Assembly (NCBI RefSeq): GCF_020535545.1
Contig: NZ_CP084753.1
Span: forward strand, 372,001-436,000
Reading direction: 5' to 3'
Origin: Roseateles sp. XES5
Lineage (GTDB): Bacteria; Pseudomonadota; Alphaproteobacteria; Rhizobiales; Rhizobiaceae
DNA length: 64,000 bases
The notes under the pieces were generated by a model. The model did no database searches and was not told where the DNA came from. It saw nothing but the letters and a program-made list of their open reading frames with translations. Both the position numbers and the translations under genes were made by a program. Below, piece after piece: positions 2,913-18,059 of this stretch; the first letter of the stretch is position 1; each line of letters opens with the position of its first letter.

Positions 2913-3941
2913 GTGAAGAAAATTGCGATGTGGAGCGCGCTCTATGCTGCGGCGCTGGCGTTTGTGGGCACCGCCTCGGCGGGAACGCTCGAAAACGTGA
3001 AGAGCAACGATATCGTCAAATGCGGCGTGACGACCGGCAATGCCGGCTTTTCCGCTCCGGACGAGAAGGGCGACTGGAAGGGCTTCGACGTCGATCTCTG
3101 CCGCGCCGTGGCCGCCGCCGTGCTGGGCGATCCGACGAAGGTACAATTCACGCCGCTCTCGGCGAAGGACCGGTTCCCCGCACTGCAATCCGGCGAGATC
3201 GACATTCTGTCGCGCCAGACCACCTGGGTGCTGAGCCGTGAAGCGAGCCTCGGCCTGCTGTTCGGCGCCGTCACCTACTATGACGGCCAGGGGTTTCTCA
3301 TCAACAGCAAGAAAATGCCTGACGTGACCTCGGCCAAGGGGCTTGCTGGCGCGACCGTCTGCCTGCTCGCGGGCACCACCACCGAGCTCAACATCGCCGA
3401 CTATTTCAAGGCGAACGGGATAGAATATTCCCCTCTGGTCTTTGAGAAGATCGAGGAGGCCAAGTCCGCCTATGACACGGGCCGTTGCGACGTTTACTCC
3501 GACGACCAGTCGAACCTTTACAGTGCGCGCCTGTCGCTATCGGCACCGGCCGAGCATGTTGTCCTGCCGGAAATCATCTCCAAGGAGCCGCTCGGCCCCG
3601 TGGTGCGCCAGGGCGACGACCGTTGGTTCAACATCGTCAAATGGACCCATTTCGCAATGGTGCAAGCCGAGGAGTTCGGCATCACGCAGGCGAATGTCGA
3701 GGACATGAAGAATTCTCCCAATCCCGAGGTGAAGCGCCTGCTCGGCATGGAAGCGGACGCCAAGCTTGGGACCGATCTCGGCCTGACGGAAGATTGGGTG
3801 GTCCGCATCGTCAAGGCAGTCGGCAACTACGGCGAAGTCTTCGATCGCAACATCGGCTCCGGTAGCCCGCTGAAGATCGCGCGCGGACTGAACGCGCTAT
3901 GGACCGACCACGGCCTGCAATACGCGATGCCGGTTCGCTGA
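2913..3941 (+). CDS. AapJ-type amino-acid ABC transporter binding protein
   Basis: This is a periplasmic binding protein of 342 residues. A GTG start follows AAAGGGAA at the right distance, and the product begins with a signal peptide (about residues 1-23, ending TASA). The mature part has the general L-amino-acid binding protein signatures: CGVTTGNAGFSAPDEKGDWK, FDVDLCRAVAAAVLG, and a central SRQTTWVLSREA block with the conserved QTTWTLSRE-like pattern. Length matches AapJ (about 340). No permease or ATPase gene follows, so it is an orphan receptor here and must use a transporter encoded elsewhere, or serve only this island. Its promoter shares a half-site with that of the FMN oxidase gene. 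Confidence 0.9.
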   Translation: MKKIAMWSALYAAALAFVGTASAGTLENVKSNDIVKCGVTTGNAGFSAPDEKGDWKGFDVDLCRAVAAAVLGDPTKVQFTPLSAKDRFPALQSGEIDILSRQTTWVLSREASLGLLFGAVTYYDGQGFLINSKKMPDVTSAKGLAGATVCLLAGTTTELNIADYFKANGIEYSPLVFEKIEEAKSAYDTGRCDVYSDDQSNLYSARLSLSAPAEHVVLPEIISKEPLGPVVRQGDDRWFNIVKWTHFAMVQAEEFGITQANVEDMKNSPNPEVKRLLGMEADAKLGTDLGLTEDWVVRIVKAVGNYGEVFDRNIGSGSPLKIARGLNALWTDHGLQYAMPVR

Positions 3942-3951
3942 GACCGTCACC

Positions 3952-3974
3952 CCGGAGGCGGACGCCGCCTCCGG
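3952..3974 (+). other. Intercistronic hairpin
   Basis: CCGGAGGCG and CGCCTCCGG pair around a 5-base loop just after the binding-protein stop codon. There is no run of T, so it is more likely an mRNA-stabilising or attenuating hairpin than a full terminator. Such hairpins often raise binding-protein levels above downstream genes. Confidence 0.5.
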
Positions 3975-4022
3975 CACCTCTTCATTGCGGCCCGCCAAGC
4001 CTTTGTCTTCGAGGACATTTCC

Positions 4023-4919
4023 ATGCTCGACGCCCGAAACCTTCGCGGCATCATTCCCGCTCTCCCGACCCTTGTCCGCCCCGACGACACGATCGATGTC
4101 CAGGCGGTGAGAACCCATCTCGCCTATCTGATCGAACGGGGCGTCGACGGGGTCCTGCCGCTTGGCGGCACCGGCGAATATGGCGCACTGCCCCGATCCG
4201 AACGCATCCGCATGGCATCCGTCACCGTGGAGGCGGTCGGCGGCAAGATCCCGGTCATCGCCGGTGTGCTAGACACCGGCTATCACGATGCACTCCAGGC
4301 AGCACGCGAGTTTGCTGATGCCGGCGTCGACGCCCTGCTCGTGCTGACGCCCTACTACACCAATCCGACCCAGGCAGGCGTACGCGACTACTTCCTGCGC
4401 TACGCGGATGAATCGCCTCTGCCGATCCTGCTTTACGAGATTCCCTACCGCACGCGTATCGCCATCGACCCCGTGGTCACGCACGAATTGTCACGCCACG
4501 AGCGCATTATCGGCATGAAGGCCTGCAACACGGATATGTACCACTTCCTGCAGATAGTGGCCGGTGTGGATGACAATTTTACGGTCCTGAGCGGCGAAGA
4601 CAGCCTGTTCCCGCTGCATGTCGCAGCAGGCGCGAAGGGTGGCATCATCGTGACGGCCAGCCTAATCCCGGACGCCTGGCGGCGTGTCCTCGATCTGGCT
4701 GCGGCTGGCAATACGGAAGCGGCAATTGCCGCGCATCGCAAGCTGATCCCGCTCCTCAACCTGATCTTCGCGGAAACCAACCCCGGCCCGATGAAGGCGG
4801 TGATGGACATGATCGGGGTAAGCGCCCCGCACGTTCTGGCGCCGCTGAAGCCGCCGGCCAACGCATTGGAAGCGCGCCTGCGCGAGGAACTGGCGAGACA
4901 GCTCGCCCGCATGGGATAG
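4023..4919 (+). CDS. DapA/NanA-family lyase, aldolase or dehydratase
   Basis: This 298-residue class I aldolase-fold enzyme belongs to the dihydrodipicolinate synthase family. It keeps the Schiff-base Lys166 (GMKACN), the catalytic Tyr138 (LYEIPYRT) and the pyruvate carboxylate-binding loop GGTGEYG (residues 48-54). YYTNPTQ (111-117) matches the usual substrate loop. The family cleaves or forms 2-keto acids, or dehydrates/deaminates sugar and hydroxyproline derivatives. True DapA is unlikely because the gene sits in a catabolic island with an amino-acid binding protein and a hydroxy-acid oxidase. A ribosome binding site GAGGA precedes the ATG. It is probably co-transcribed with the binding protein 81 bases upstream. 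Confidence 0.88.
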   Translation: MLDARNLRGIIPALPTLVRPDDTIDVQAVRTHLAYLIERGVDGVLPLGGTGEYGALPRSERIRMASVTVEAVGGKIPVIAGVLDTGYHDALQAAREFADAGVDALLVLTPYYTNPTQAGVRDYFLRYADESPLPILLYEIPYRTRIAIDPVVTHELSRHERIIGMKACNTDMYHFLQIVAGVDDNFTVLSGEDSLFPLHVAAGAKGGIIVTASLIPDAWRRVLDLAAAGNTEAAIAAHRKLIPLLNLIFAETNPGPMKAVMDMIGVSAPHVLAPLKPPANALEARLREELARQLARMG

Positions 4920-5048
4920 GCCAATCGTCCAACGGGCCGGTGAAAGGATCAAGATCGACAAGGGGCTTCATCCCTGTCACCTTGCGTCAGGGGACCGACC
5001 AGAATGTGCCGACAGTGGAACGGGTTATTTTCCGGCGCTCCGCCTATC

Positions 5049-5801
5049 CTATCCCGGGTGCGGGGCCTGATCTGCGGCGCCACGAAAAATCGCAACCGCT
5101 TCTGCCACCAACGCCGCATTTGCAAACGCTTGCTCGCCGTTCCCGAGCAAGCGCCCATCTTCAAGTCCGATGCGAGTCGACCAGCGTTTTTCTCGTGCAC
5201 GCGAAACGAAGTGCCAGACGGTCTCATCGAACCCGTGCAACAATATCGGTCGCTGGATATCCGCGCGTTCGAGGATGCTGGCGATCGCCCCGGCAATCGA
5301 ATCCGCCTTCGCAATGTTCTGCTCTTCGATCTCGATGAGGATGCGGAAGACGCGCCGGCAATCGGGAAGTGAGACGAACCGCTCCGCGTCAGCAACCGTG
5401 GCCAAACCCGCTTCGACCCCGACATTCATGCGGTTCAGCAAAGCCATTACCACAGGAGCATCAGGCTCGCAGAGGTTTACCGAAGCATAGTCGGGAAGCC
5501 GGTTCCACTTGGCGATGCATTCCCTCGTTCGCGCCTCGTCACCTTCAATCCAAGCGCCGGTGGAAACCCCGACGAGACTTCCCGGGCACGCATGCCGCAA
5601 AGCATTCATCGTGTCATCGACCGCCGCCAGGCTCTCTCGTCCGTCCGGGCCGCGGGGATGGATGTGAAGTTCGGCCGCTCCGGCCGCGATGCAAGCGGCT
5701 CCGTCCTTCGCCAGAGCGGCTGCGGATACCGGGAGCCGGGGATGATAGTCCGCGAACCGTGCGCCATTCATGCAAGCCTGTACAATCATCGTAGGTTCCA
5801 T
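5049..5801 (-). CDS. BKACE-family beta-keto acid cleavage enzyme (DUF849)
   Basis: This enzyme of about 250 residues belongs to the beta-keto acid cleavage family, which uses zinc and acetyl-CoA to convert a beta-keto acid to acetoacetate plus a new CoA ester. The metal-binding HxH lies in AELHIHPRGPDG near residue 47, and later conserved segments include VGVSTGAWI, ASVNLCEPDA, GVEAGL and LLHGFDETVWHFV. It is somewhat shorter than typical members (about 275-310). The start is uncertain: the ATG at 5801 is the longest, while the ATG at 5789 has a better GGAA ribosome site. It lies convergent with the DapA-like gene and downstream of the deoR-like gene on the same strand. Confidence 0.85.
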   Translation of the reverse strand: MEPTMIVQACMNGARFADYHPRLPVSAAALAKDGAACIAAGAAELHIHPRGPDGRESLAAVDDTMNALRHACPGSLVGVSTGAWIEGDEARTRECIAKWNRLPDYASVNLCEPDAPVVMALLNRMNVGVEAGLATVADAERFVSLPDCRRVFRILIEIEEQNIAKADSIAGAIASILERADIQRPILLHGFDETVWHFVSRAREKRWSTRIGLEDGRLLGNGEQAFANAALVAEAVAIFRGAADQAPHPG

Positions 5802-5834
5802 GCCCTGCAACGCCGGGTCAGCCGCGATCCAATC

Positions 5835-6224: not shown

Positions 6225-7004
6225 TCAATATTGCGTTGTGACAAGGGTGGTGGCACCACACGTCTCCATCGCCTCGGCGATATTTGCCGGTGGTTCGGCG
6301 TCTGTGACGAGGCGGCTCACGCGATCCCAACCGGTCACCTCGAATATGCCGCGTTTGTTGAACTTCGAGGCATCGGCGAGCACGGTGACCGTCTCGACCC
6401 GCTCGATCATCGCTCGAGCGATCTGCGTTTCCGCCTCATCGAAGTCCAGCAGGCCCGTTCCATCCAGCGCGCCGACGGTCAGGAATGCGTGGCGCGCCCG
6501 AAAGCGGGCGATCTGCTCGACGGCCAAAGAGCCGACCGTTTCCGACGCATCCATGCTGAACGCACCACCGATCAGAAAGACCTTGTTGTCGCCGCCGGCG
6601 GATACGAGCGAAGCGATGCGGATGCTGTTTGTAATCACCGTCAGGCCCGACAATCCGGCAATGGCTTCGGCGAACAGAACGGTCGTCGTCCCGGTATCGA
6701 TGAAAAGACTGTCTCCCGGGGACAGGAGGCTTGCGGCCGCCTTTGCGATTTGGCGCTTGGCCGAGAGGTTTTCGGCCATCCGCGCCGCAAATGGTCCTTC
6801 GCCGCCAATCTCCGTTGCAGCGATGGAGCGGAGTTTGGCTCCGCCATGGAACTTCTGAAGCCTGCCCAACTCATCGAGGCCGACCAGATCCCGGCGGATC
6901 GTCTCGCGGGAGACCTCGAGCTCTTCGGCAAGTTGATCCACGCTGACCTCGCCGCGACGGGTGACAAGCCGGATTATCTCTTCGTGACGCTCGTGTGGAC
7001 GCAC
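6225..7004 (-). CDS. DeoR/GlpR-family sugar-phosphate-responsive repressor
   Basis: This is a 259-residue DeoR-type regulator. It has an N-terminal helix-turn-helix (RHEEIIRLVTRRGEVSVDQL then VSRETIRRDLVGLDELG) and a C-terminal phosphosugar-sensing domain with the conserved FIDTGTTT, ITNS, IGG and TVGALDGTGLLDFD patterns. Members are usually relieved by a phosphorylated substrate such as glycerol-3-phosphate. A GTG start at 7004 is chosen because GGAAAGG precedes it and the resulting length is typical; an upstream frame would add 26 unlikely residues. It is divergent from the dehydrogenase/kinase operon, whose intergenic region carries repeated GACCGAAYGGT words, so it probably controls that operon and itself. 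Confidence 0.9.
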   Translation of the reverse strand: MRPHERHEEIIRLVTRRGEVSVDQLAEELEVSRETIRRDLVGLDELGRLQKFHGGAKLRSIAATEIGGEGPFAARMAENLSAKRQIAKAAASLLSPGDSLFIDTGTTTVLFAEAIAGLSGLTVITNSIRIASLVSAGGDNKVFLIGGAFSMDASETVGSLAVEQIARFRARHAFLTVGALDGTGLLDFDEAETQIARAMIERVETVTVLADASKFNKRGIFEVTGWDRVSRLVTDAEPPANIAEAMETCGATTLVTTQY

Positions 7005-7089
7005 TGGTGAACCTTTCCGATAACGCCTGAACTCATTGCCGCAGCATGCCCGAACGGGCAAAAAATACAGGAACGCGTCCACATATAGC

Positions 7090-7241
7090 GACCGAATGGT
7101 CGGGATGCAAAGCGTTCAGATATGAAAAATCGTCGTAGATTCAACGTTGAAGGGGTGCAGGACGAGGTCTGAAAGGATTCCTGCTTTACAGAATGATGCG
7201 GTTATTGTTACCGTTCGGTCATAAATCGCCCAAACGGTAGG
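7090..7241. promoter_or_regulatory. Divergent promoter region with repeated GACCGAAYGGT words
   Basis: GACCGAATGGT occurs at 7090-7100, its inverted form ACCGTTCGGTC at 7210-7220, and a related AAACGGTAGG at 7232-7241 immediately before the operon start. GACC-GAAT-GGTC at 7090-7101 is itself palindromic. Placement on both sides of the deoR/dehydrogenase divergent promoters fits operators for the DeoR repressor. The assignment is inferred. Confidence 0.45.
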
Positions 7242-7251
7242 AATTTATGTT

Positions 7252-8661
7252 GTGAACGCACAATCGCAACTTTCCGGCAGTGAGCTTTTCGACGTCGCGA
7301 TCATCGGGGCCGGCGTCGTCGGCTGCGCGGTTGCACGACGGTTCGCCCTTGCGGGTGCGAAAGTCGCCCTCATCGAGAAGGGCTCCGACATTCTTTCGGG
7401 CGCATCCAAGGCAAACAGCGCGATCCTTCACACGGGGTTCGATGCACCCAAGGCAAGCCTCGAACTCGCATTGGTCCAGGCCGGACGACAGGAATACCTC
7501 GATATCCATCAGGACATGAATTTGCCCCTGGTCGAAACAAGTGCTCTTGTTTGCGCTTGGACTCCCGATGAAGCCTCTAAGCTCGAAGGGATCGCCGAGC
7601 AGGGTCGCCAGAACGGGATCGACCGTCTCCGGTTGTTGACCTCCGCAGAAGCGCGCGCTGTGGAGCCCGGATTGGCAGATAATCTGGTTGCAGCGCTTCA
7701 TGTTCTCGATGAACACGTCATCGATCCGTGGTCAGCGCCCCTTGCTTACGTCAATCAGGCGACCGCGCTTGGCGCAACCGTCCTTCGCCAGTGCGAGGTA
7801 CGGGCAGGGGCATTCGACGGGACATGGCTGCTCGAAACCAACCGGGGCGACATCAGGTCGAAATGGGTGGTCAACGCGGCCGGTCTTTTCGGCGACCATG
7901 TCGATGCCCGTCTGGGATTCCAGCCCGAATTCCTGATCAAGCCTCGCAAAGGCCAGTTCGTCGTCCTCGACAAGGCGGCATCGCGGCAGCTGAAGACCAT
8001 CATTCTCCCCGTACCGAACGAGATCACCAAGGGTGTCGTCGTCTGTCCGACGGCATTCGGCAACATCCTGGTCGGTCCCACTGCCGAAGAACAGGACGAT
8101 CGCATCCGGGCGACAGTCGAACATGACACGCTCGCGGCGCTCGTTGCGCATGGCAGCAAGCTCGTCCCCGGTCTCGCCCATATTCCGGTCACTGCAGTTT
8201 ATGCAGGCCTGCGTCCCGCGACAGAAAAAAAGGAATACCGCGTCATCCATCGCGCCGAGCACAATGCCATCACCCTTGGCGGGATTCGTTCCACGGGGCT
8301 CAGTTCCGCCCTCGGCCTCGCGCAACATGCCTTGAAGCTTCATGGCGGTGCAGAGCGCGGCGAGTTCGCCGCCAGGGCAACACCGACGGTGTGCATGCCA
8401 AATCTAGCCGAGAGCAGACCGCGGGACTGGCAAGCCGCAAACCACGGCGACATCGTCTGCCACTGCGAGATGGTCACACGCCGCGAGATCGAAGCCACAC
8501 TCAGAAGCCCGCTTCCGCCCGGTGATTTCGGCGGCCTGCGACGGCGCACGCGCGCAGGGATGGGGCGCTGCCAAGGCTTCTACTGCAACGCCAGGCTCGC
8601 CGAAATCAGCAAGGACTGCCTCGCTACACCGTTGGCGGTCGATCGGGAGGGCGGCACATGA
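7252..8661 (+). CDS. GlpA-like FAD-dependent dehydrogenase with C-terminal [2Fe-2S] domain
   Basis: This 469-residue protein combines a DAO-type FAD domain (GAGVVG at 19-24, then ALIEKGSDILSGASKANS) with a BFD-like [2Fe-2S] domain at the end: Cys403 and Cys405 in VCHCE, Cys440 and Cys445 in GRCQGFYC. This is the build of GlpA, the catalytic subunit of anaerobic glycerol-3-phosphate dehydrogenase, and of some amino-acid and hydroxyproline dehydrogenases. It starts with GTG, preceded by AGGAA. The next gene overlaps its end by four bases and encodes a second flavoprotein, suggesting a heteromeric enzyme passing electrons from a polyol phosphate or similar substrate. No membrane anchor such as GlpC is nearby. 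The exact substrate is open. Confidence 0.85.
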   Translation: MNAQSQLSGSELFDVAIIGAGVVGCAVARRFALAGAKVALIEKGSDILSGASKANSAILHTGFDAPKASLELALVQAGRQEYLDIHQDMNLPLVETSALVCAWTPDEASKLEGIAEQGRQNGIDRLRLLTSAEARAVEPGLADNLVAALHVLDEHVIDPWSAPLAYVNQATALGATVLRQCEVRAGAFDGTWLLETNRGDIRSKWVVNAAGLFGDHVDARLGFQPEFLIKPRKGQFVVLDKAASRQLKTIILPVPNEITKGVVVCPTAFGNILVGPTAEEQDDRIRATVEHDTLAALVAHGSKLVPGLAHIPVTAVYAGLRPATEKKEYRVIHRAEHNAITLGGIRSTGLSSALGLAQHALKLHGGAERGEFAARATPTVCMPNLAESRPRDWQAANHGDIVCHCEMVTRREIEATLRSPLPPGDFGGLRRRTRAGMGRCQGFYCNARLAEISKDCLATPLAVDREGGT

Positions 8662-9878
8662 GCTGGTCCGACGTTATCATTATCGGCGGAGGTCCTTCCG
8701 GCGTCGCAGCCGCAATTGCGATGCGAAAGGCCGGTGTTGACAAAATCACGCTCCTTGAGAGGGAGCGTTACCTTGGCGGGGCGACGCGGCACTGCAGCCA
8801 TTCGCCCTTCGGAATGCTCGAGTTCGGCCGCGTCTATCTGGGCGCTGCCTATGGCCGCCGCCTGGAACAGGAGATCGCCAGGCACGACATCGACCTGCGA
8901 TACGGCCATTCCGTTGCCCAGCTGGGAGAAGACGGCGAACTCCTCGTAGCGAATCCCGATGGCCTTCAGACCCTGTCGGCCAAGCGCGTGCTTGTAACGA
9001 CCGGGGTACGGGAAACGACACGTGCCGCACGGCTCGTCACAGGTGATCGTCCGGTCGGCATCGTCACGACAGGCACCTTGCAGTCCTATGTCGCCTTCCA
9101 CAACATGATGCCGTTCAACCGCCCGGTCATTGTCGGATCGGAACTCGTTACGCTCTCCGCGATCTGGACATGCCTCAGCCATGGCGCCCGTCCCGCCGCA
9201 GTCCTTGAGCCGGGATCACATTCCCTGGTGCGCGCGCCACTGAATTGGTTTCCGTCCCTGATGGGTGTTCCATTCCACCGCGATGCGCAGGTTGTCGACA
9301 TTCTCGGCCGTGGCCGCGTCGAGGCCGTACGGATCAAGCGCGGCGATATCGTCGAAACGATCGAATGCGACGGCGTTCTGTTCTCCGGCGGGTTTACGCC
9401 AGAGGCCTCGCTGTTCCTGACGTCCGGGCTAGAAGTCGACCTGGGAAGCGCGGGCCCGGCTGTCGATCAGGATGGCCGCTGCGAAAACCCCCGCTATTTC
9501 GCTGCGGGCAACGTGTTGCGAGCCGTCGAGACCGGAGGATGGGCATTCCGCGAGGGCAGGGCCATCGGAACGGCCCTCGCGGCGGACCTGCTTGGCGACC
9601 CGGCGAGGGCCACTCCGACGAAGGTCACCTACGACGCACCGATCAAGCTTGTCGTGCCGAACCTCCTGCGAAGCGGATCAGCGCTTCCCGGTGGCTTGAA
9701 GGACTTTCAACTGCGCTTCCAGCGCAGGGTTAAGGGGACGCTCTCGCTGTCCATCGATGGAAGCGAGGTTTGGCAGCGTAGCGCAACATGGCGGCCGGAA
9801 AGCCGGATCGTCGTCCCACGACCAAACAATTCGACGGGCGCGCAAAGCGTCCACTTCGGCTTCAGGGAGGAAGTTTGA
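8658..9878 (+). CDS. FAD/NAD(P)-binding oxidoreductase, partner of the GlpA-like subunit
   Basis: This is a 406-residue two-dinucleotide-domain flavoprotein. An FAD motif GGGPSG is near residue 10, VLVTTGVRET near 115, and a closing FAD segment ends in RYFAAGNVLRAVETGGWAFREGRAIG. It resembles the NAD/FAD subunits that accompany GlpA-like or hydroxyproline-type dehydrogenases and lacks a BFD domain of its own. A conserved Cys pair is not evident. Its ATG overlaps the preceding TGA (ATGA), which indicates tight translational coupling and equal amounts of both subunits. The kinase gene starts directly after its stop codon. It most likely moves electrons between the GlpA-like subunit and a soluble or membrane acceptor. 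Confidence 0.8.
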   Translation: MSWSDVIIIGGGPSGVAAAIAMRKAGVDKITLLERERYLGGATRHCSHSPFGMLEFGRVYLGAAYGRRLEQEIARHDIDLRYGHSVAQLGEDGELLVANPDGLQTLSAKRVLVTTGVRETTRAARLVTGDRPVGIVTTGTLQSYVAFHNMMPFNRPVIVGSELVTLSAIWTCLSHGARPAAVLEPGSHSLVRAPLNWFPSLMGVPFHRDAQVVDILGRGRVEAVRIKRGDIVETIECDGVLFSGGFTPEASLFLTSGLEVDLGSAGPAVDQDGRCENPRYFAAGNVLRAVETGGWAFREGRAIGTALAADLLGDPARATPTKVTYDAPIKLVVPNLLRSGSALPGGLKDFQLRFQRRVKGTLSLSIDGSEVWQRSATWRPESRIVVPRPNNSTGAQSVHFGFREEV

Positions 9879-11273
9879 ATGCGTGTCGCATCGATAGACC
9901 AAGGAACGACATCGACCCGATGCCTGGTCGTGGAGGACGGGGGCGAATGGAAGATCGTCGCCAGCCGCAAGCACGGGCAGGATCACCCCTTCGCAGGCTG
10001 GGTCGAGCATGATCCGCACGAGCTTCTGAAGAATATCGTCACCGTTCTGGATGCAGCCGGAACGGTCGATGCGGTCGCAATCGCAAACCAGGGCGAGAGC
10101 TGCCTGGCATGGGATGCCGAGACCAAGGAAGCGCTTTCACCCGTGATCGTGTGGCAGGATTCCCGAACGGCGAAGTATCTCGCCGATCTGGGGAGCGACG
10201 CCGAGGAAACCTCCAGGCGCATCTGCGGTCTTCCGCTCGATCCGTATTTCTCGGCCAGCAAGCTCGCCTGGCTCCTCCGTCATGTTCCAAGCATTCAGGA
10301 AACCTACAAGGCAGGCCGGCTTCGCCTCGGGACGACAGACGCATTCTTCCTCGATTCTCTGGCGGACGTCTTCGCCACCGATCTCGCGACAGCGTCGCGA
10401 ACCGGCCTCCTTGATCTTGCGACGGGCACGTGGAGCGACGAGCTTTGCACCTTGCATGGTGTTCCGAGGGAATGCCTCCCGCGCATCGCGAACGTGGACG
10501 ATGATTTTGGCCAGATCAACGGCATTCCCGTAAAAGCCTCCATCGTCGACCAGCAAGCAGCCCTGTTCGGTCACGGATGCCGGAAGCCCGGCGACTGCAA
10601 GATAACGTTTGGAACGGGAGCGTTCCTTCTTGCCGTGAGCGGCAACGAACGCCCGCCGCAGTCGGAGTTGCTTCCGACCGTCGCCTGGGCGCTGAAGGAC
10701 AGCGGCACGGCCTTTGCCATCGAAGGCGGCGTCTACGATGCAGGCTCAGCGCTGGAATGGGCCAGAAATATCGGCCTCTACTCTGCGCTTGAAGAGCTGG
10801 GCGTGTTCGAGGGGCCATCGGCGCTGAGCCGCGGGATCATCTTCGTCCCGGCTCTGTCGGGTCTCGCAGCCCCATACTGGGATCGAACGGCCGCGCCGAT
10901 GTTCATCGGCATGGACCACACCACGGATCGGCGTGACCTCGTCCGCGCGGTCCTGGAAGGCATCGCCATGCTGACTGTCGGGCTGATCAAGGCCGCGTCC
11001 GAGGTCACGGATCTCGGTCCCAGCATTTCGATCGACGGCGGATTGTCGCAAAGCGCCTACTTCGCCCAGTTCCTCGCCTCGGCCAGCGGTCGCACCATCA
11101 CCGTCCCGGCGATGCACGAACTGACGGCCCTCGGGCTCGCGGAATTCTGCGGTCTCGACGTCACCGCAGCCCGCGCCAGGAGCGCACGTTACGGGCCCGA
11201 CGGATCGGTCACCGAAGCACACCACGCGCTGTTCAAGAAAGCCGTCGAGCGATCGCGCGGCTGGCGCGACTGA
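9879..11273 (+). CDS. FGGY-family kinase resembling glycerol kinase
   Basis: This 464-residue sugar/polyol kinase has the glycerol-kinase marks: the phosphate-binding SIDQGTTSTR at the N-terminus, WQDSRTAKYL, the polyol-contact region LPLDPYFSASKLAWLL, the catalytic Asp224 in DQQAALFGHG, and the C-terminal FGGY signature DGGLSQSAYFAQFLASASG. It should transfer phosphate from ATP to a small polyol. It is slightly shorter than GlpK (about 500). The start codon follows the previous stop with no gap, so translation is coupled to the dehydrogenase subunits. Glycerol is the obvious candidate, but no glpF or glycerol ABC importer is linked and the partners differ, so a related polyol or amino-polyol is possible. 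Confidence 0.85.
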   Translation: MRVASIDQGTTSTRCLVVEDGGEWKIVASRKHGQDHPFAGWVEHDPHELLKNIVTVLDAAGTVDAVAIANQGESCLAWDAETKEALSPVIVWQDSRTAKYLADLGSDAEETSRRICGLPLDPYFSASKLAWLLRHVPSIQETYKAGRLRLGTTDAFFLDSLADVFATDLATASRTGLLDLATGTWSDELCTLHGVPRECLPRIANVDDDFGQINGIPVKASIVDQQAALFGHGCRKPGDCKITFGTGAFLLAVSGNERPPQSELLPTVAWALKDSGTAFAIEGGVYDAGSALEWARNIGLYSALEELGVFEGPSALSRGIIFVPALSGLAAPYWDRTAAPMFIGMDHTTDRRDLVRAVLEGIAMLTVGLIKAASEVTDLGPSISIDGGLSQSAYFAQFLASASGRTITVPAMHELTALGLAEFCGLDVTAARARSARYGPDGSVTEAHHALFKKAVERSRGWRD

Positions 11274-11311
11274 CGCACCACAGAACGCTTAAAATCAGGA
11301 GTTTATGCTGC

Positions 11312-11668
11312 ATGCGAAAGATATTTCTCGCAGGCCCGTACGGTCATGCCGATCGCGAGGTCGTCGACCGCAGGTTCAACGAGGCGAATGCGGTCGCCGC
11401 CAGGATCGCTCGGAGCGGATCGACCGTCTTCAGCCAGATTTCCATGTCCCATCCGATCAACGGCCACCTGCCGGATCTCGACAAGGCGGCCATCGGCAAA
11501 CTGTGGGCTCCGATCGACCAGGCCTTCATGGAAGCCATGGACGAGATCGTCGTGATCGACGGTCCGGGCTGGCAGGAAAGCGCCGGCGTCAAGCGGGAGA
11601 TGGAGTTTTTTGAATCCAGGGGGCGTCGCGTCAGCCTCTGGAGCGATGTCGAGCACGAATTCGCTTAA
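11312..11668 (+). CDS. DUF1937 protein, nucleoside-2-deoxyribosyltransferase-like fold
   Basis: This 118-residue protein starts at the ATG ten bases after AGGAG; an out-of-frame ATG at 11305 is too close. The N-terminal FLAGPYGHADREVVDRRFNE and the central VFSQISMSHPI and MEAMDEIVVIDGPGWQES segments match the DUF1937 family, whose fold is like nucleoside 2-deoxyribosyltransferases. Those enzymes break N-glycosidic bonds, using an acidic residue; several Asp and Glu residues in the DEIVVIDG region could serve. Biological roles for DUF1937 are not established as far as I know. Its place between a polyol kinase and a permease suggests it acts on the same imported compound, perhaps releasing a base or amide from a glycosyl-type substrate. 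Confidence 0.7.
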   Translation: MRKIFLAGPYGHADREVVDRRFNEANAVAARIARSGSTVFSQISMSHPINGHLPDLDKAAIGKLWAPIDQAFMEAMDEIVVIDGPGWQESAGVKREMEFFESRGRRVSLWSDVEHEFA

Positions 11669-11701
11669 CCGACGCAACTGGGCAAGAAACAGGGGAATTC
11701 A

Positions 11702-13201
11702 ATGACTACAGTATCCAATCCCGGCTCCGCGCCGGGGCAAACCGATCACGACCATCTCAAGCGCGACGTCACGCCGTTCCAGTCGTTCGCGGTCGCGTTC
11801 GGCTTCGTCTCGATCGCCACGGGCATCTTTACCGCCTATGGCGCAATGCTTTCGAGTTCCGGCCCGATGGGCATCTGGACCTGGCCCGTCGTCGTCATCG
11901 GTCAGCTCATGGTCGCATTGATCATCGGTTCGCTTGCCGCCCGTATTCCGGTAACCGGCTACATCTACCAGTGGGCATCGCGTCTGACCAATCCGGTCTT
12001 CGGCTGGATCATGGGCTGGATCGGGTTTACCTTCCTCGCCGTGGTGCTTGTCGCGGTCGACTATACGATCGCCTCGACCGTCCTTCCGGTCCTGCTCAGC
12101 TATGAGGGGACCGCCGAGAACGCCTGGTGGATCACCGGTGTCGTGATCATCGCGCAGGCCGTCATGATCGCCTTCTCGACGAAGTTCACCCAAAAATTCA
12201 ACGCCGTCGCGGTAACCATCCAGCTCGTCGGCATGATTGGCCTCGTCGTGCTGCTGTTTGCTGTCGGCGCCTACAACAACGAGCTCGACTTCTCGAACCT
12301 TTTCAGCACCGGAAGCGTCGCACAGGAGGGCTACTATTCGCTCGGCACGCTGACGAGCGTCGGTCCCTGGATCATGGGTACGCTCCTCGGCGCATTCACG
12401 ATCGTCGGTTTCGAATCCGCGGCGAACCTTGCCGAAGAGACCCGCGATCCCGCGCGTGTCGTTCCCAAGGCCATGTGGCAGGCCGTCCTGAGCCTCGGCA
12501 TTATCGGCATGCTGTTTCTCATCGCCGTCACGGCGCTGCTCGGCGACCCGACCGCACTCAGCGGCTCCGCGACCCCGATTGCCGACGTCATCAACCGCGT
12601 TCTCGGTCCGGTTCTCGGCAATCTCCTTCTGGTGCTGGTCGTCATCTCGATCTTCTCCTGCGGCCTCGTCATCCTGCTGAGCGGCACCCGCCTCGTTTGG
12701 GCCATGTCGCGTGACGAGCGCTTCCCGGGCTGGCAGCTGTGGCATCGCATCAGCCCTTCCTTGAAGACGCCGGTTAACGCCACCGTGTTCATGGCCGTCG
12801 TCGGCCAGGTCATCCTTGCCTTGTTCGCGAAGCAGACGGATGCGCTGTTCGCACTGTTTTCGGCTGCGACCCTGCTTCCGGCGATCATCTATGCCGTCAC
12901 CGTCCTGATTTACGCGTTCCAGCGCACCAATTTGCCGCCAAGCCAAGGCTTTCGTCTTGGTGCGTGGGAAACGCCGGTGCTGATCGTGGCAATCCTCTGG
13001 CTTGTCTTCGAGCTTGCGATTTTCCGCGATGCATCGTTTGCGAAACCATGGTCCTATGTTGCAATCATGTTCGCGATCGGCGTGGTCTATCTGGTGTTCC
13101 TGCTTGCGACACGCGGGGGAACGAAGGGCCTCAAAATGCCCGACATGATCTCGGTTGACGCTATCCTCGATGCCGACAAGGGCGAGGAAGCCTTGCACTG
13201 A
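11702..13201 (+). CDS. APC-superfamily amino acid/amine permease
   Basis: This is a 499-residue inner-membrane transporter with about 12 hydrophobic segments. The early FQSFAVAFGFVSIATGIFT, the VALIIGSLAARIPVTGYIYQW block and GFESAANLAEETRDPARVVP (a hallmark of the amino acid/polyamine/organocation superfamily) fix the family. APC permeases of this branch carry amino acids, choline, GABA or ethanolamine-type amines with a proton or by exchange. A GGGGAATTC ribosome site precedes the ATG. It closes the DeoR-controlled operon and is followed by a clear terminator. Its presence instead of a glycerol facilitator is the main reason to doubt that plain glycerol is the substrate of the operon. Confidence 0.88.
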   Translation: MTTVSNPGSAPGQTDHDHLKRDVTPFQSFAVAFGFVSIATGIFTAYGAMLSSSGPMGIWTWPVVVIGQLMVALIIGSLAARIPVTGYIYQWASRLTNPVFGWIMGWIGFTFLAVVLVAVDYTIASTVLPVLLSYEGTAENAWWITGVVIIAQAVMIAFSTKFTQKFNAVAVTIQLVGMIGLVVLLFAVGAYNNELDFSNLFSTGSVAQEGYYSLGTLTSVGPWIMGTLLGAFTIVGFESAANLAEETRDPARVVPKAMWQAVLSLGIIGMLFLIAVTALLGDPTALSGSATPIADVINRVLGPVLGNLLLVLVVISIFSCGLVILLSGTRLVWAMSRDERFPGWQLWHRISPSLKTPVNATVFMAVVGQVILALFAKQTDALFALFSAATLLPAIIYAVTVLIYAFQRTNLPPSQGFRLGAWETPVLIVAILWLVFELAIFRDASFAKPWSYVAIMFAIGVVYLVFLLATRGGTKGLKMPDMISVDAILDADKGEEALH

Positions 13202-13373: not shown

Positions 13374-14345
13374 TCATGGAGCAGGCGACGTATCCACAGA
13401 CACGGGCTGTCCCGCCGATGCTCCGTCATCACTCGCTTCGTCGCTACGCGCACATTCGACGAGAACGCGGACGGCTTCCTGCAGCATCGGGCCAAGATGC
13501 CGGCCTTTTTGCCAGAATACGACATAGTGGTAGAGAGCGCTTGGTTCGAACGGGCGGATCACGACGTCGAAACAGGTCGCCTGCCGAGCGGCGAAGGTGT
13601 TGCTGCTCGAAATACCGAGACCGGCTGCGACGAAGCTGATCTCCTGCCCGATAACATCCACCTGGATGGCGAGATGCGGTTCAGCCCCCATGTAACGCAT
13701 GGCATTCTCGCTCATGAGATGGGATTGCATTTGCGGCTCGATGTCCACCAGCGGCTCGCCCACGAGATCTTCCGCCCTTATCAGGTCTTCCTGCGCCAGC
13801 CTGTGGTCGGGATGGAAAATGCAGACATTGGTCGCCGTCGTGACCGGGCACCAGTCGAAGACATTTTCGTCCAGCGGCAGGCGGCCAAGCCCCAGATCGG
13901 CTCGCCCTTCGAGCACATGATCCGTCACGTCGGCATAGGTGCCTGACTTGAAGTGGACCGCCGCGAGAGGCTGGCGGATTCTCAGCATCCGGACAGCGTC
14001 GGGAAGGAGCCGCATGGAGAAAACATGAGGCGCCGCGATGCCGATCGTATCGCTGTCTATCCCCTGGAAGGATGCGACGGTCTTGGCGATCCTTTCCATC
14101 TGGACGAACGTGGCATCCGCCTCGCGAAACAGCGTCATCGTCTGAGCCGTCGGAACGAGTCTCCCCTTGTCCCGAATGAACAGGTGAACGCCAAGAAGGG
14201 TCTCGAGTTGCTTGATCTGCTGGCTGACGGCCGGCTGGGTGATGCGAAGCGACTTGGCCGCCGCGCGCTCGGAGCCCGTCCTGACCACCTCCCGCAATAT
14301 CTGGAGCTGGCGAAGCGTCACCCCCGTCTGCGCGATTTCCACCAT
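13374..14345 (-). CDS. LysR-family transcriptional regulator
   Basis: This 323-residue LysR protein has an N-terminal winged helix (about residues 8-67: LRQLQILREVVRTGSERAAAKSLRITQPAVSQQIKQLE) and a two-lobed effector-binding domain (about 95-300). The open frame continues far upstream into the neighbouring operon, but the ATG at 14345 gives the standard LysR N-terminus and length. It is divergent from the amino-acid ABC transporter operon starting at 14689 and separated from it by an AT-rich region with an inverted repeat, so it probably activates that operon in the presence of the imported compound. Effector unknown. Confidence 0.9.
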   Translation of the reverse strand: MVEIAQTGVTLRQLQILREVVRTGSERAAAKSLRITQPAVSQQIKQLETLLGVHLFIRDKGRLVPTAQTMTLFREADATFVQMERIAKTVASFQGIDSDTIGIAAPHVFSMRLLPDAVRMLRIRQPLAAVHFKSGTYADVTDHVLEGRADLGLGRLPLDENVFDWCPVTTATNVCIFHPDHRLAQEDLIRAEDLVGEPLVDIEPQMQSHLMSENAMRYMGAEPHLAIQVDVIGQEISFVAAGLGISSSNTFAARQATCFDVVIRPFEPSALYHYVVFWQKGRHLGPMLQEAVRVLVECARSDEASDDGASAGQPVSVDTSPAP

Positions 14346-14688
14346 GACGACGCCCTCATTGCCGGCAGAGTGTAGCGCGACGCGATCAAAGATCAACTTA
14401 TACTTAACCCCAAGATACGCGGCAGTTTGGCGAGCATACATATAAGCCTGGCTAATAGAAAAATAATCTCGCTTATAAATTGACCCCGTGGCGGCGGCGC
14501 GTAATTCTGTCTCCACAACGCCGCTTTGGCAGATACCCGGCGTCATCGGAGCCCGGAAGCTCCCCATCGCAAACATCGACAACGGAAAGGGTGGTGCCGC
14601 TCCATGCGTGCAGCAAAGGCTTTGTCGCGGCCAGAATCTGGCTTGCCCAGCATCGACGACGCAGGAGTATCGAAGAGGATCCGTGACG
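14346..14688. other. Divergent intergenic region between lysR and ABC operon
   Basis: This 343-base gap is AT-rich on the lysR side (14395-14480) and GC-rich on the operon side. The AT-rich half carries the TATAAGC/GCTTATA inverted repeat and probably both promoters. The GC-rich half can be read in frame with the ATPase gene from 14488, but that extension has no family support; it is more likely a long leader. Nothing else is recognisable. Confidence 0.5.
14441..14477. promoter_or_regulatory. Candidate LysR operator (TATAAGC/GCTTATA inverted repeat)
   Basis: TATAAGC (14441-14447) and GCTTATA (14471-14477) form a perfect 7-base inverted repeat around an AT-rich centre, roughly 100 bases upstream of the lysR start and 200 upstream of the ATPase start. 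A related ACTTATACTTA lies at 14396-14406. Position and symmetry suit a LysR-type site; this is inference. Confidence 0.4.
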
Positions 14689-15486
14689 ATGCTTGCATCT
14701 AGGGCGGAACCGACGCGGACGCTCGGCATTCGCGCGGAGCGGATCGTCAAGCGGTTCGGAGGCGACGATGTCCTGCGGGGCGTCAATCTCACCGTTCGGC
14801 CTGGTGAAATCCTCTCCATTCTCGGCAGCAGTGGCTCGGGCAAGAGCACACTTCTCAGGTGCCTCAACCTGCTGACCGTTCCCGATGGGGGCGATATCTG
14901 GGTGCACGGCGAAAAGCTGGCGCTCGGGGCGTCGTCTCGCCCTGGCGAACAGGCCGTAATCTTCGACGCGTTGCAGGTCCGCCGGGTACGCGCGTCCATG
15001 GGCATGGTGTTCCAGAACTTCAATCTCTGGCCCCACAAGACAGCGCTCGAAAATGTCACCGAAGGTCCCGTTCACGTCAAAGGAATGCAGCGCCGCGCCG
15101 CCGCCGAACTTGGACGCGCCTATCTTGCGAAGGTCGGGCTGTCGGAGAAGGCGGATGCCTATCCGCATCACCTCTCGGGCGGCCAGCAGCAACGCGTGGC
15201 GATCGCCCGCGCGCTTGCGATGGAGCCTCGCGTCCTGCTTTTCGACGAGCCGACATCGGCACTCGATCCGGAACTGGTGGGCGAAGTGCTGCGCGTCATG
15301 GGCGCGCTTGCCGCAGAGGGGCGCACGATGGTGATCGTCACCCACGAACTGGCCTTCGCACGCGAGGTATCGACGCAAGTCGCCTTCATGCACGGCGGGA
15401 GGATCGAGGAAGAAGGCCCGCCACAGGCGTTTTTCTCCTCTCCCGTCTCCAGCCGCCTTCGCGGCTTTCTGGCCTCACATCGATAG
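14689..15486 (+). CDS. Amino-acid ABC transporter ATPase (GlnQ/HisP type)
   Basis: This is a 265-residue ATPase subunit. Walker A is GSSGSGKST (near residue 46), the Q-loop lies in MGMVFQNFNLWPH, the signature is [17 protein letters not shown], and Walker B is VLLFDEPTSALDPE. It powers the two permeases encoded immediately after it. The ATG at 14689 is chosen because AGAGGA precedes it by about nine bases; a GTG six bases earlier is also possible. It is the first gene of an operon running to the CapA-like gene. The insert between the Walker A region and the Q-loop (GEKLALGASSRPGEQAVIF) is somewhat long but typical of histidine/arginine-type ATPases. Confidence 0.92.
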   Translation: MLASRAEPTRTLGIRAERIVKRFGGDDVLRGVNLTVRPGEILSILGSSGSGKSTLLRCLNLLTVPDGGDIWVHGEKLALGASSRPGEQAVIFDALQVRRVRASMGMVFQNFNLWPHKTALENVTEGPVHVKGMQRRAAAELGRAYLAKVGLSEKADAYPHHLSGGQQQRVAIARALAMEPRVLLFDEPTSALDPELVGEVLRVMGALAAEGRTMVIVTHELAFAREVSTQVAFMHGGRIEEEGPPQAFFSSPVSSRLRGFLASHR

Positions 15487-15499
15487 AAGGGCGTTGCGC

Positions 15500-16159
15500 A
15501 TGGATGGCTTTGGCATGCAGTTCGTCGAGGGACTGAAGACGACGGTACTGCTGGCGCTTGCCAGCGGTACGCTCGGCATGGCGCTGGGTTTGCTCGCCGC
15601 CGCAGGGCGGTTGTCGCGATGGAAGGCGCTGAGCGTCGGGATCGGCGTCTACACGACGATCATTCGGGGCGTGCCCGAACTGATCATAATCCTGCTGATC
15701 TATTTCGGCGGAACGATCGCAATCAGCGCCTTCTTCGGCCGCTATATCGAGATCAACGCGTTCCTCGCCGGTGTCGTTTCCCTGACGGTCGTCTTCGGCG
15801 CCTATACCGCGGAAATCTTCCGGGGAGCGGTCCTGAGCATACCCAAGGGGCAGATCGAGGCCGCCCGCTCGCTCGGGATGCATCCCTGGCAGACCTGGCT
15901 TCTGATCATCGCTCCGCAGATGCTGCGCATCGCACTGCCGGCCCTTGCGAACCAGTGGATATCTCTCGTCAAGGAAACGTCGCTGATCTCGATCGTCGGC
16001 CTGACCGACATCATGCGGGTCGCCGCCATTGGCGCCGGCTCCCTGCGTGCGCCGCTGACATTCTACCTCGCCGCGTCCGCTCTCTATCTCACCCTGACCA
16101 GTCTTGCGCTGGTGATCTTCAACCGTCTCGAACGGCGTTTTGCCGTCCCCGGACGATGA
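15500..16159 (+). CDS. Amino-acid ABC transporter permease 1 (HisM/HisQ type)
   Basis: This is a 219-residue inner-membrane subunit with about five hydrophobic segments and the HisMQ-type coupling loop EAARSLGMHPWQTWLLIIAP, which docks on the ATPase. An early TIIRGVPELIIILLIYFG segment is typical of polar-amino-acid permeases. The ATG at 15500 is preferred over a TTG six bases earlier because AGAAGGG is well spaced from it. Its stop codon overlaps the start of the next permease (ATGA), as usual for such heterodimeric pairs. Confidence 0.9.
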   Translation: MDGFGMQFVEGLKTTVLLALASGTLGMALGLLAAAGRLSRWKALSVGIGVYTTIIRGVPELIIILLIYFGGTIAISAFFGRYIEINAFLAGVVSLTVVFGAYTAEIFRGAVLSIPKGQIEAARSLGMHPWQTWLLIIAPQMLRIALPALANQWISLVKETSLISIVGLTDIMRVAAIGAGSLRAPLTFYLAASALYLTLTSLALVIFNRLERRFAVPGR

Positions 16160-16902
16160 GGCTGTCTATCATGGATTTCGCCCTTCTCCTGACAAGCACG
16201 ATCGCCCTTGCCAGCGGCATTCCGCTGACGCTCCTTCTGACATTCGCATCGCTGCTTGCCGGTTTCGTTCTGGCAGTACCGCTGGCCTTCATGCGTGCCT
16301 CGCCTCGCAGGCGGTTTTCCCTGCCGGTGCTCGCTTACACCTATGTGTTCCGCGGCACCCCGCTGCTCGTCCAGCTTTTCATCATCTACTATGGGCTCGG
16401 CCAGATCGGCGCCATTCGCGCAAGTGTCTTCTGGCTCCTGCTGCGCGATCCGTTCTGGTGCTGCCTCTTTGCCTTCTCCCTCAACAGCGCCGCCTACGCG
16501 ACGGAAATTTTCCGTGGAGGAATTCAAGCCGTATCGACCGGGGCGATCGAGGCGGCGAAGGCGGTCGGCATGTCGCCGCTACAGATCAAGCGCCGGATCG
16601 TTTTCCCCATCGCCTTCAGAAGCGTTCTTCCATCCTACGCCAACGAAGTCATCAGCCTCGTGAAAGCGACGTCTCTCGCCAGCACGGTGACCTTGCTGGA
16701 GATCACCGGCCTCTCGCGAAAACTGGTTTCGGAGACCTTTGCGCCCTACGAAATCTTCATTGCCGCCGGCGTGCTCTATCTCGCCCTGACATTTCTCCTC
16801 ACGGCCTTCTTCAACGCGCTGGAGGCTCGTTTGAACGACGCGCCGCCGGTCAAGGCGCGCCCGCGTCTCCTCAATCTCCAGCAGGTGCCCCATGAACAAT
16901 AG
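16156..16902 (+). CDS. Amino-acid ABC transporter permease 2
   Basis: This is the 248-residue second permease. It has VFRGTPLLVQLFIIYYGLG near the middle and the ATPase-docking loop EAAKAVGMSPLQIKRRIVFP. A longer open frame begins well inside the previous gene, but the ATG overlapping the previous stop gives the family length. Its last bases overlap the start of the racemase-fold gene by 11, so the transporter and that enzyme are translationally linked. Confidence 0.9.
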   Translation: MRLSIMDFALLLTSTIALASGIPLTLLLTFASLLAGFVLAVPLAFMRASPRRRFSLPVLAYTYVFRGTPLLVQLFIIYYGLGQIGAIRASVFWLLLRDPFWCCLFAFSLNSAAYATEIFRGGIQAVSTGAIEAAKAVGMSPLQIKRRIVFPIAFRSVLPSYANEVISLVKATSLASTVTLLEITGLSRKLVSETFAPYEIFIAAGVLYLALTFLLTAFFNALEARLNDAPPVKARPRLLNLQQVPHEQ

Positions 16903-18058: not shown

Positions 18059-18059
18059 C

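What the first reader, a model, noticed from the sequence alone, without database searches (positions are those of the whole stretch)
6225..13201. Undescribed-looking DeoR-controlled kinase/dehydrogenase/DUF1937/APC island
The order is DeoR repressor, then on the other strand a GlpA-like FAD/[2Fe-2S] protein, a flavoprotein partner, a GlpK-like kinase, a DUF1937 protein and an APC permease, with overlapping or abutting start codons in the first three operon genes. Family knowledge says kinase plus GlpA-type dehydrogenase converts a polyol to a keto-phosphate. But there is no glpF, no GlpC anchor and no glycerol ABC importer. An amino acid/amine permease and a nucleoside-deoxyribosyltransferase-fold protein take their place. 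My inference is that the substrate is an amino-polyol or a glycosyl-type compound whose breakdown yields a glycerol-like alcohol.
Basis: partly seen in the sequence, partly recalled or inferred. Interest (0 to 1): 0.7.

Follow-up and report, generated by a model that had tools for sequence, protein, structure and literature searches.

The report
Probable amino-alcohol version of glycerol breakdown
A five-gene cassette in a soil bacterium looks like the glycerol-burning pathway re-tuned for a small amino alcohol such as serinol or ethanolamine, and it ties a protein family of unknown function, also found in Pseudomonas aeruginosa, to that pathway.

Summary
The cassette is real: divergent DeoR, then GlpA-like, GlpB-like, GlpK-like kinase, DUF1937 and APC permease at 7252-13201. 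It is conserved as a block in other bacteria. The kinase belongs to a distinct FGGY subfamily. All 71 distinct member kinases examined carry Gly where glycerol kinases carry Arg83; Glu84, Trp103, Tyr135, Asp245 and Phe270 are kept. Six of six non-member paralogues read keep Arg. The GlpA-like partner keeps the glycerol-3-phosphate oxidase residues checked. Relatives carry the EtoX-type TRAP transporter, whose characterised homologues bind ethanolamine (19 of 71 loci), or sit near ethanolamine ammonia-lyase EutB (6 of 71) or the ethanolamine transporter EutH (P. aeruginosa, with DUF1937). Best reading: import of a 2-amino alcohol, phosphorylation by the re-tuned kinase, FAD-linked oxidation to a triose phosphate, with loss of ammonia if the amine is on C2. 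Serinol (2-aminoglycerol) fits best; ethanolamine is the main rival. DUF1937 has the nucleoside-deoxyribosyltransferase / nucleotide N-glycosidase fold; its reaction is unknown. Nothing was assayed; the substrate is inference.

The parts
6225..7004 (-). DeoR-family repressor (259 aa if it starts at GTG 7004; the longer ORF starts at 7082)
   Evidence: Pfam HTH_DeoR + DeoRC; start from codon-usage calling and sequence
7209..7239 (.). Candidate DeoR operator TACCGTTCGG-N11-CCAAACGGTA (arms 9/10 complementary) between DeoR and the operon
   Evidence: Block conserved in 7 of 7 aligned intergenic regions, including two whose other intergenic sequence has diverged; function inferred
7252..8661 (+). 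GlpA-like FAD dehydrogenase with C-terminal BFD-like [2Fe-2S] domain (469 aa)
   Evidence: DAO + Fer2_BFD; best solved relative is glycerophosphate oxidase 4x9m; Ser47/His51/Lys258/Arg320/Ser348 equivalents and 4 BFD Cys: 69 of 70 rows have the residue at each position, the other row has a gap
8658..9878 (+). GlpB-like FAD/NAD-type flavoprotein partner (406 aa)
   Evidence: Pyr_redox_2; found in 68 of 71 member loci
9879..11273 (+). FGGY kinase, GlpK-like subfamily with Gly72 in place of Arg83 (464 aa); proposed amino-alcohol kinase
   Evidence: FGGY_N/C; TIGR01311 382.6 bits, below its cut-off of 590; signature residues
11312..11668 (+). DUF1937 protein, N-(deoxy)ribosyltransferase fold (118 aa), putative N-glycosidase; accessory
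   Evidence: PF09152 122 bits; 64% identical to 1t1j, model pLDDT 95.6; invariant S90, G92, R95, E96 among 30 homologues
11702..13201 (+). APC-superfamily permease (499 aa), proposed amino-alcohol importer
   Evidence: AA_permease_2; best NCBIfam TIGR03428, far below its cut-off; EtoX-type TRAP transporter in its stead in related cassettes

Best explanation
The cassette is a DeoR-controlled catabolic operon for a small 2-amino alcohol, most likely one with a glycerol skeleton (serinol, 2-amino-1,3-propanediol). The APC permease imports it. The GlpK-like kinase, in which Arg83 (which contacts glycerol hydroxyls) is Gly while the acidic Glu84 and Asp245 stay, binds the amine in place of a hydroxyl and phosphorylates a primary hydroxyl. 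The GlpA/GlpB-like FAD and [2Fe-2S] pair, whose glycerol-3-phosphate residues are unchanged, oxidises C2 of the isosteric phosphate; if C2 bears the amine, the imine hydrolyses to dihydroxyacetone phosphate and ammonia, which enter central metabolism. DUF1937 is an accessory enzyme with an N-glycosidase-type fold, perhaps freeing the amine from an N-linked conjugate. Shown: the genes, their order, the residue patterns, the neighbours. Inferred: substrate, chemistry, direction of transport, role of DUF1937.
For: Kinase: Gly at the Arg83 position in 71 of 71 distinct members (75 alignment rows: 73 Gly, of which 2 are duplicate places, and 2 Arg, this genome's own paralogues). All 6 non-member paralogues that I read, L007, L008, L009, L101, L089 and the second copy in L011, keep Arg. 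[quoted passage not shown] GlpA residues kept in every row that covers them, 69 of 70 per position. EtoX-type binding protein: closest solved relative 4uab/4xf5 at E 5.6e-135; 4uab is Csal_0678 with ethanolamine (PMC12410723, passages; ethanolamine binding also PMC4646407, passages) and EtoX binds ethanolamine at Kd 7.9 uM (PMC10132767, passages). In 52 kinase-bearing genomes, 14 of 21 EtoX-type genes lie within 10 kb of the kinase. EutB lies within 10 kb of the kinase in 5 of the 18 sampled genomes that hold both, and near the cassette of a Chelatococcus plasmid. A P. aeruginosa plasmid has kinase, GlpB, GlpA and DeoR beside EutH-DUF1937. Transporter swaps inside one 20-kinase clade (support 100/100). 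Ethanolamine, L-alaninol and serinol bind one sensor site alike (PMC12410723, passages). Class II fructose-bisphosphate aldolase and FBPase genes follow the cassette in an Agrobacterium plasmid, as expected for a triose-phosphate product.
Against: No assay. The window's own genome has neither EutB nor an EtoX-type protein. None of the 9 NCBIfam families listed for the window's APC permease is an ethanolamine permease. 12 of 71 member loci have none of the partner genes I labelled within 9 kb, and other branches sit beside MttB, class IV aminotransferase, dimethylformamidase-like or peptide-type binding-protein genes, so the wider kinase family may not share one substrate. Two members (L078, L117) have no GlpA/GlpB beside the kinase in the stretch held. 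Serinol was not picked out by any direct evidence; ethanolamine fits the transporter evidence at least as well. His51, the base for alcohol oxidation in GlpO, is kept, which would also suit a C2-OH substrate such as 3-amino-1,2-propanediol. DUF1937 has no obvious step in the route.
Confidence: 0.55

Rival explanations
1. The substrate is ethanolamine itself: the kinase makes phosphoethanolamine and the FAD pair deaminates it to glycolaldehyde phosphate.
For: EtoX homologues bind ethanolamine; EutB or EutH neighbours. 12 of 19 EtoX-bearing loci have neither EutB nor a glutamine-synthetase-like gene within 9 kb, so the cassette might be the whole ethanolamine route there.
Against: The GlpA residues are conserved as for three-carbon glycerol 3-phosphate; Trp103 and Phe270, which pack on the glycerol carbons, are kept. 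Where EutBC is present an ethanolamine route already exists. Cassette-linked EtoX proteins are 70-89% identical to the L055 one, while of the 7 unlinked copies four are 61-65% (the other three 76-85%), which hints at, but does not prove, a different ligand. Glycolaldehyde phosphate has no obvious outlet (inference).
Confidence: 0.17
2. It serves another amino alcohol: 3-amino-1,2-propanediol (giving 3-amino-2-oxopropyl phosphate), L-alaninol, or an N-methylated or N-acylated form.
For: Catalytic His51 kept for a C2 hydroxyl; neighbours in some relatives belong to families that act on amides or N-methyl compounds: gamma-glutamyltranspeptidase, P1-family aminopeptidase, MttB, glutamine-synthetase-like.
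Against: No gene for onward metabolism of an amino-keto phosphate was recognised; these neighbours vary between branches.
Confidence: 0.15
3. An ordinary extra glycerol / glycerol-3-phosphate island with a non-standard permease.
For: Family names; GlpA residues unchanged; PA1487 is listed in print as a presumed glycerol kinase (PMC8151288, passages).
Against: Arg83 lost in 71 of 71; kinase and GlpA far below the GlpK and GlpA equivalog cut-offs; the genome already has a kinase with the full glycerol signature (L101); transporter partners in relatives are of amino-alcohol type.
Confidence: 0.08
4. DUF1937 defines the pathway: the substrate is an N-glycoside or nucleotide-like compound that DUF1937 cleaves first, and the kinase and dehydrogenase act on the released part.
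For: NDT/DNPH1/MilB fold with invariant Glu96; in the order sample the 3 strong DUF1937 genes (over 110 bits) all lie beside or within 12 kb of this kinase and the 3 weak ones (under 80 bits) do not.
Against: 57 of 71 cassettes lack DUF1937 within 9 kb; no nucleoside gene is in the window's cassette. Genes annotated adenosine deaminase (L094) and rutA (L095) lie near two relatives, but no DUF1937 was found in those loci. Nucleoside genes were not searched for systematically.
Confidence: 0.05

Closest known systems
Glycerol catabolism: GlpK with GlpD or GlpABC
   Same: FGGY kinase, FAD dehydrogenase pair and DeoR repressor; glycerol-3-phosphate oxidase residues kept
   Different: Kinase lacks Arg83 and scores under the GlpK cut-off; no glpF, no GlpC in the cassette; amino-alcohol-type transporters in relatives; DUF1937
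Type 2 glycerol-3-phosphate oxidase (Mycoplasma pneumoniae GlpO, 4x9m)
   Same: Best solved relative; catalytic His and four other checked residues kept
   Different: Extra BFD-like [2Fe-2S] domain and a flavoprotein partner, so probably a dehydrogenase, not an oxidase (inference)
Ethanolamine use through the EtoVWX TRAP transporter and gamma-glutamylation (Chromohalobacter, Phaeobacter, Agrobacterium C58)
   Same: EtoX-type binding protein near the kinase in 19 of 71 loci; a glutamine-synthetase-like gene near 4 (one of them at 30% identity)
   Different: No kinase or GlpAB pair in the Phaeobacter operon as listed in a figure legend; the window uses an APC permease instead
Ethanolamine ammonia-lyase EutBC / EutH systems
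   Same: Neighbours of orthologous cassettes
   Different: EutB absent from the window's genome
Pseudomonas aeruginosa PA1485-PA1492 (numbers by counting from PA1492 and PA1498; read on a plasmid)
   Same: APC, P1 peptidase, kinase, GlpB, GlpA, DeoR, EutH, DUF1937: an orthologous set in another class
   Different: EutH-DUF1937 on the other strand from the kinase genes; kinase 51% identical
Nucleoside deoxyribosyltransferases and nucleotide N-glycosidases (DNPH1, MilB)
   Different: About 12-20% identity in the structural alignments; not hit by the sequence profile at E 10; activity unknown

Membership tests
Glycerol kinase GlpK | Signature Arg83, Glu84, Tyr135, Asp245, Phe270 | tested here: not met
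   Arg83 is Gly72; the other four kept
Glycerol kinase GlpK | Score above NCBIfam TIGR01311 cut-off | tested here: not met
   382.6 against 590.35 bits
Glycerol kinase GlpK | Phosphorylates glycerol as best substrate | not testable with these tools
   needs an enzyme assay
[quoted passage not shown]
   147 and 91 bits, both above cut-off
Anaerobic glycerol-3-phosphate dehydrogenase GlpABC | GlpA equivalog score and GlpC anchor | tested here: not met
   131 against 552.8 bits; no GlpC among the cassette genes
Glycerol-3-phosphate oxidase/dehydrogenase active site | Ser47, His51, Lys258, Arg320, Ser348 of M. pneumoniae GlpO (His51; the rest recalled) | tested here: met
   all present in the window protein; 69 of 70 family rows at each position, the other row a gap
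EutBC ethanolamine degradation | EutB in the genome | tested here: not met
   0 matches in G000
EtoX-type amino-alcohol import | EtoX-type TRAP binding protein in the genome | tested here: not met
   0 matches in G000 at E 1e-100; present near 19 of 71 member kinases
DUF1937 | PF09152 over its cut-off | tested here: met
   122.1 against 23 bits
N-(deoxy)ribosyltransferase fold | Structural match to NDT, DNPH1 and MilB | tested here: met
Nucleotide N-glycosidase (DNPH1/MilB type) | Hydrolysis of nucleoside 5'-monophosphates | not testable with these tools
   needs an assay; that the Ser90...Glu96 spacing resembles these enzymes is from recall only
Serinol catabolic enzyme | Kinase and dehydrogenase act on serinol and serinol phosphate | not testable with these tools
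   inference from pocket and neighbours

The most novel reading that the evidence does not exclude
An undescribed bacterial pathway that degrades 2-aminoglycerol (serinol): a glycerol kinase re-tuned by one invariant Arg83-to-Gly change makes serinol phosphate, a GlpA/GlpB-type flavoprotein pair removes the amine oxidatively to give dihydroxyacetone phosphate and ammonia, and DUF1937 is an N-glycosidase that frees the amino alcohol from a natural conjugate; the same set in P. aeruginosa gives the orphan structure 1T1J (PA1492) a pathway.
Probability: 0.3. Interest if true: 0.75.

Novelty: new variant of a known kind. Interest (0 to 1): 0.6.

Why it matters
Such kinases are taken for glycerol kinases, for instance in the annotation of two P. 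aeruginosa plasmids and for PA1487 in print. A one-residue diagnostic (NQGE in place of NQRE) would split off a whole subfamily, 52 of 397 sampled genomes of this order, as likely amino-alcohol kinases. It gives DUF1937, solved in 2004 as 1T1J and called uncharacterised in 2020 (PMC7308715), a pathway context in which to test it, and suggests a route by which soil and rhizosphere bacteria turn small amino alcohols into triose phosphate and ammonia.

Tried and rejected
Ordinary glycerol island: rejected as most likely reading (Arg83 loss, cut-offs, transporters). DUF1937 as the defining gene: rejected, not within 9 kb in 57 of 71 cassettes. The neighbouring SBP_bac_3, DHDPS-family and BKACE genes (2913-5810) and the LysR-like, amino-acid ABC, racemase and second binding-protein genes (13374-18905) as part of the system: rejected, because in the six named loci (L010-L015) a tblastn with all of them found only one ABC ATPase match, in L012 (L010 is short at 10.9 kb). 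DUF1937 profile against PDB sequences found only 1t1j even at E 10. The phylum samples added little: 4 of 398 genomes for the kinase and 2 of 299 for DUF1937, G000 included in both. Paper searches on DUF1937 (0 papers), FGGY/DeoR/APC terms (0), serinol catabolism and amino-alcohol terms (0) showed no description of this pathway; others (1,435 papers, 20 listed; 468 papers, 10 listed) gave listings, of which I read passages of two papers (PMC9283133; PMC7765489). All ten paper searches are used. The other papers cited were seen as passages only. My first gene caller produced spurious antisense genes and was replaced; three loci without the kinase (L083-L085) had too little training data and were dropped. 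The beta-aminopeptidase search was seen as a listing only. The ligand of L055's binding protein is taken from its relative 4uab; that 4xf5 holds 2-amino-1-propanol is recalled, from no call. The chance figure for EtoX linkage is my own arithmetic, not a simulation.
Full report
Observation. The window lies at G000:C2:372001-436000 of a 5.8-Mb genome. A same-genus genome, G010, has a contig of exactly the length (541,497 bases) of the Shinella sp. SUS2 contig that carries the same cassette, so the window is probably Shinella (inference). The six genes are as described: DeoR on the minus strand, then GlpA-like 7252-8661, GlpB-like 8658-9878, FGGY kinase 9879-11273, DUF1937 11312-11668 and APC permease 11702-13201. 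Overlap of 4 bp, abutment, then gaps of 38 and 33 bp make one operon likely. DeoR more probably starts at 7004. Between DeoR and the operon, an inverted repeat at 7209-7239 is conserved in all 7 intergenic regions aligned, also in two whose other sequence has diverged: a likely operator.

Conservation. A scan of named genomes for close relatives of DUF1937 gave 6 loci: Mesorhizobium, a Xanthobacteraceae bacterium, Neorhizobium, Shinella, Rubellimicrobium and Ensifer. All 6 have GlpA, GlpB, kinase, DUF1937 and APC in this order; GlpA in L015 and APC in L014 match in two pieces, and L014 has its DeoR downstream. Three same-genus genomes have it too, one of them probably the same as L013. The window's kinase is 95-98% identical to those in L010, L011 and L099 but 74% to those of its own genus, which points to horizontal transfer.

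The wider family. In 397 genomes of the order, the kinase has a close relative (E up to 1e-90) in 52 and DUF1937 occurs in 6. I fetched the surroundings of the 51 other than the window's, two more same-genus loci, one more genome of the class, and 10 of the 11 plasmid records with a kinase hit. With the window and the six named loci that makes 71 distinct members. In the stretches held GlpA-like was found in 69, GlpB-like in 68 and DeoR in 49; in one of the 69 (L078) the GlpA match is some 9 kb from the kinase, not beside it. So the stable core is kinase plus the flavoprotein pair; transporter and accessory genes vary.

Kinase pocket. In E. coli numbering, Arg83, Glu84, Tyr135 and Asp245 hold the glycerol hydroxyls and Trp103/Phe270 pack on its carbons (PMC3245297 and PMC2680290, passages; similar in PMC7765489, passages). 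In all 71 members Arg83 is Gly, and Glu84, Trp103, Tyr135, Asp245 and Phe270 are kept; 75 alignment rows gave 73 Gly (two of them duplicate places) and 2 Arg, the latter this genome's own two other FGGY kinases. All six non-member paralogues that I read, these two included, keep Arg83; other glycerol-kinase matches were not read. The members were chosen by overall similarity or by DUF1937, not by this residue. The FGGY study says that GlpK signature residues are identical among its clusters, so this is a departure from a rule in print. Replacing an Arg by Gly beside a kept Glu makes room for, and favours, a positive charge: inference.

Dehydrogenase. The GlpA-like protein is nearest to type 2 glycerophosphate oxidase. 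His51, proposed as the catalytic base (PMC10726252, passages), and the equivalents of Ser47, Lys258, Arg320 and Ser348 (contact roles recalled) are kept in every row that covers them, 69 of 70 rows at each position with one gap, as are four Cys of the BFD-like domain (one row is a duplicate place). So the second step should act on a molecule shaped like glycerol 3-phosphate.

Neighbours. The clue to the substrate is in the relatives. (i) 19 of 71 loci have a TRAP transporter whose binding protein belongs with that of L055, whose closest solved relative is 4uab/4xf5 (E 5.6e-135; next best 6e-15). 4uab is Csal_0678 with ethanolamine bound (PMC12410723, passages), an atypical TRAP ligand (PMC4646407, passages), and its relative EtoX binds ethanolamine but not phosphoethanolamine, glycerol 1- or 3-phosphate or phosphocholine (PMC10132767, passages). 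The Glu in the stretch that I take to hold the Csal_0678 ligand Glu (numbering not checked) is invariant in 19 of 19. In the 52 kinase genomes, 14 of 21 EtoX-type genes lie within 10 kb of the kinase; by rough arithmetic chance would give about 0.1. (ii) EutB lies within 10 kb of the kinase in 5 of the 18 sampled genomes with both; 117 of 397 genomes hold EutB at all. Four of the five are one genus, so the events are not independent, but a Chelatococcus plasmid adds a sixth locus with EtoX-type TRAP and EutBC together. (iii) A P. aeruginosa plasmid has APC permease, P1-family peptidase, kinase, GlpB, GlpA, DeoR, EutH and DUF1937 in one stretch, which by counting from PA1492 and PA1498 corresponds to PA1485-PA1492. 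(iv) In fewer loci, within 9 kb: MttB methyltransferase (7), class IV aminotransferase (4), glutamine-synthetase-like (4), peptide-type binding protein (4), aldolase-like (3), gamma-glutamyltranspeptidase (2), dimethylformamidase-like (2), nitrilase-like (2), choline-kinase-like (1) (families). Twelve members had none of the labelled partners; among these L050 has another kind of TRAP transporter and L066 a DUF1937 gene about 12 kb away.

Transporter swap. In a maximum-likelihood tree the window's kinase sits in a clade of 20 (support 100/100) that mixes DUF1937+APC cassettes with EtoX-TRAP, EutB and GGT cassettes; the Chelatococcus EtoX+EutB cassette is sister to the Shinella/Ensifer DUF1937+APC group at 96/93. 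If close kinases share a substrate, the APC permease carries what the EtoX-type system carries.

Which amino alcohol? Transport evidence says ethanolamine-like; pocket evidence says glycerol-like. Serinol is both; a sensor that binds ethanolamine also binds L-alaninol and serinol, and transaminases slowly turn DHAP into serinol phosphate in vitro, with a matching weak peak in a cell line (PMC9283133, passages). Oxidative loss of the C2 amine of serinol phosphate would give DHAP and ammonia; aldolase and FBPase genes directly after the cassette in an Agrobacterium plasmid fit. I give an amino-alcohol substrate of some kind about 0.87 (the sum of the three such readings), serinol itself about 0.4. 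Ethanolamine, alaninol and 3-amino-1,2-propanediol stay open.

Verdict. The most likely account is a glycerol-type pathway re-tuned for a 2-amino alcohol, a new variant of a known kind. It is testable with one kinase assay.

Noticed in passing
6225-13201 against L010, L011, L099 and same-genus G004/G010/G011: The kinase is 95-98% identical to ones in other genera but 74% to those of its own genus: probable horizontal transfer of the cassette.
   Followed up: partly
L089 (G000:C3:302439-303743): A further FGGY kinase of the same genome keeps Arg83 but has Met for Tyr135 and Ser for Phe270: another glycerol-kinase paralogue of unknown specificity.
   Followed up: no
2913-5810: Amino-acid-type binding protein (SBP_bac_3), DHDPS-family enzyme and divergent BKACE (beta-keto acid cleavage) gene upstream; possibly a separate catabolic island.
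   Followed up: no
13374-18905: A LysR-like gene (by eye), an amino-acid ABC transporter (by eye and by clustering), an alanine-racemase-family protein that also scores on VanT serine racemase models below their cut-off, and a second binding protein: looks like a D-amino-acid or serine operon.
   Followed up: no
L062, L065, L072, L111, L113, L114, L116: MttB-family methyltransferase near the kinase in one family (f23) of the order; may mark an N-methylated substrate.
   Followed up: no
7040-7110: Two further short palindromes (GCCCGAACGGGC, GACCGAATGGTC) near the DeoR start resemble the operator core.
   Followed up: no
L014:8421-11241: The APC permease match in Rubellimicrobium is in two pieces about 1.4 kb apart and DeoR lies downstream: a rearranged or interrupted copy.
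   Followed up: no
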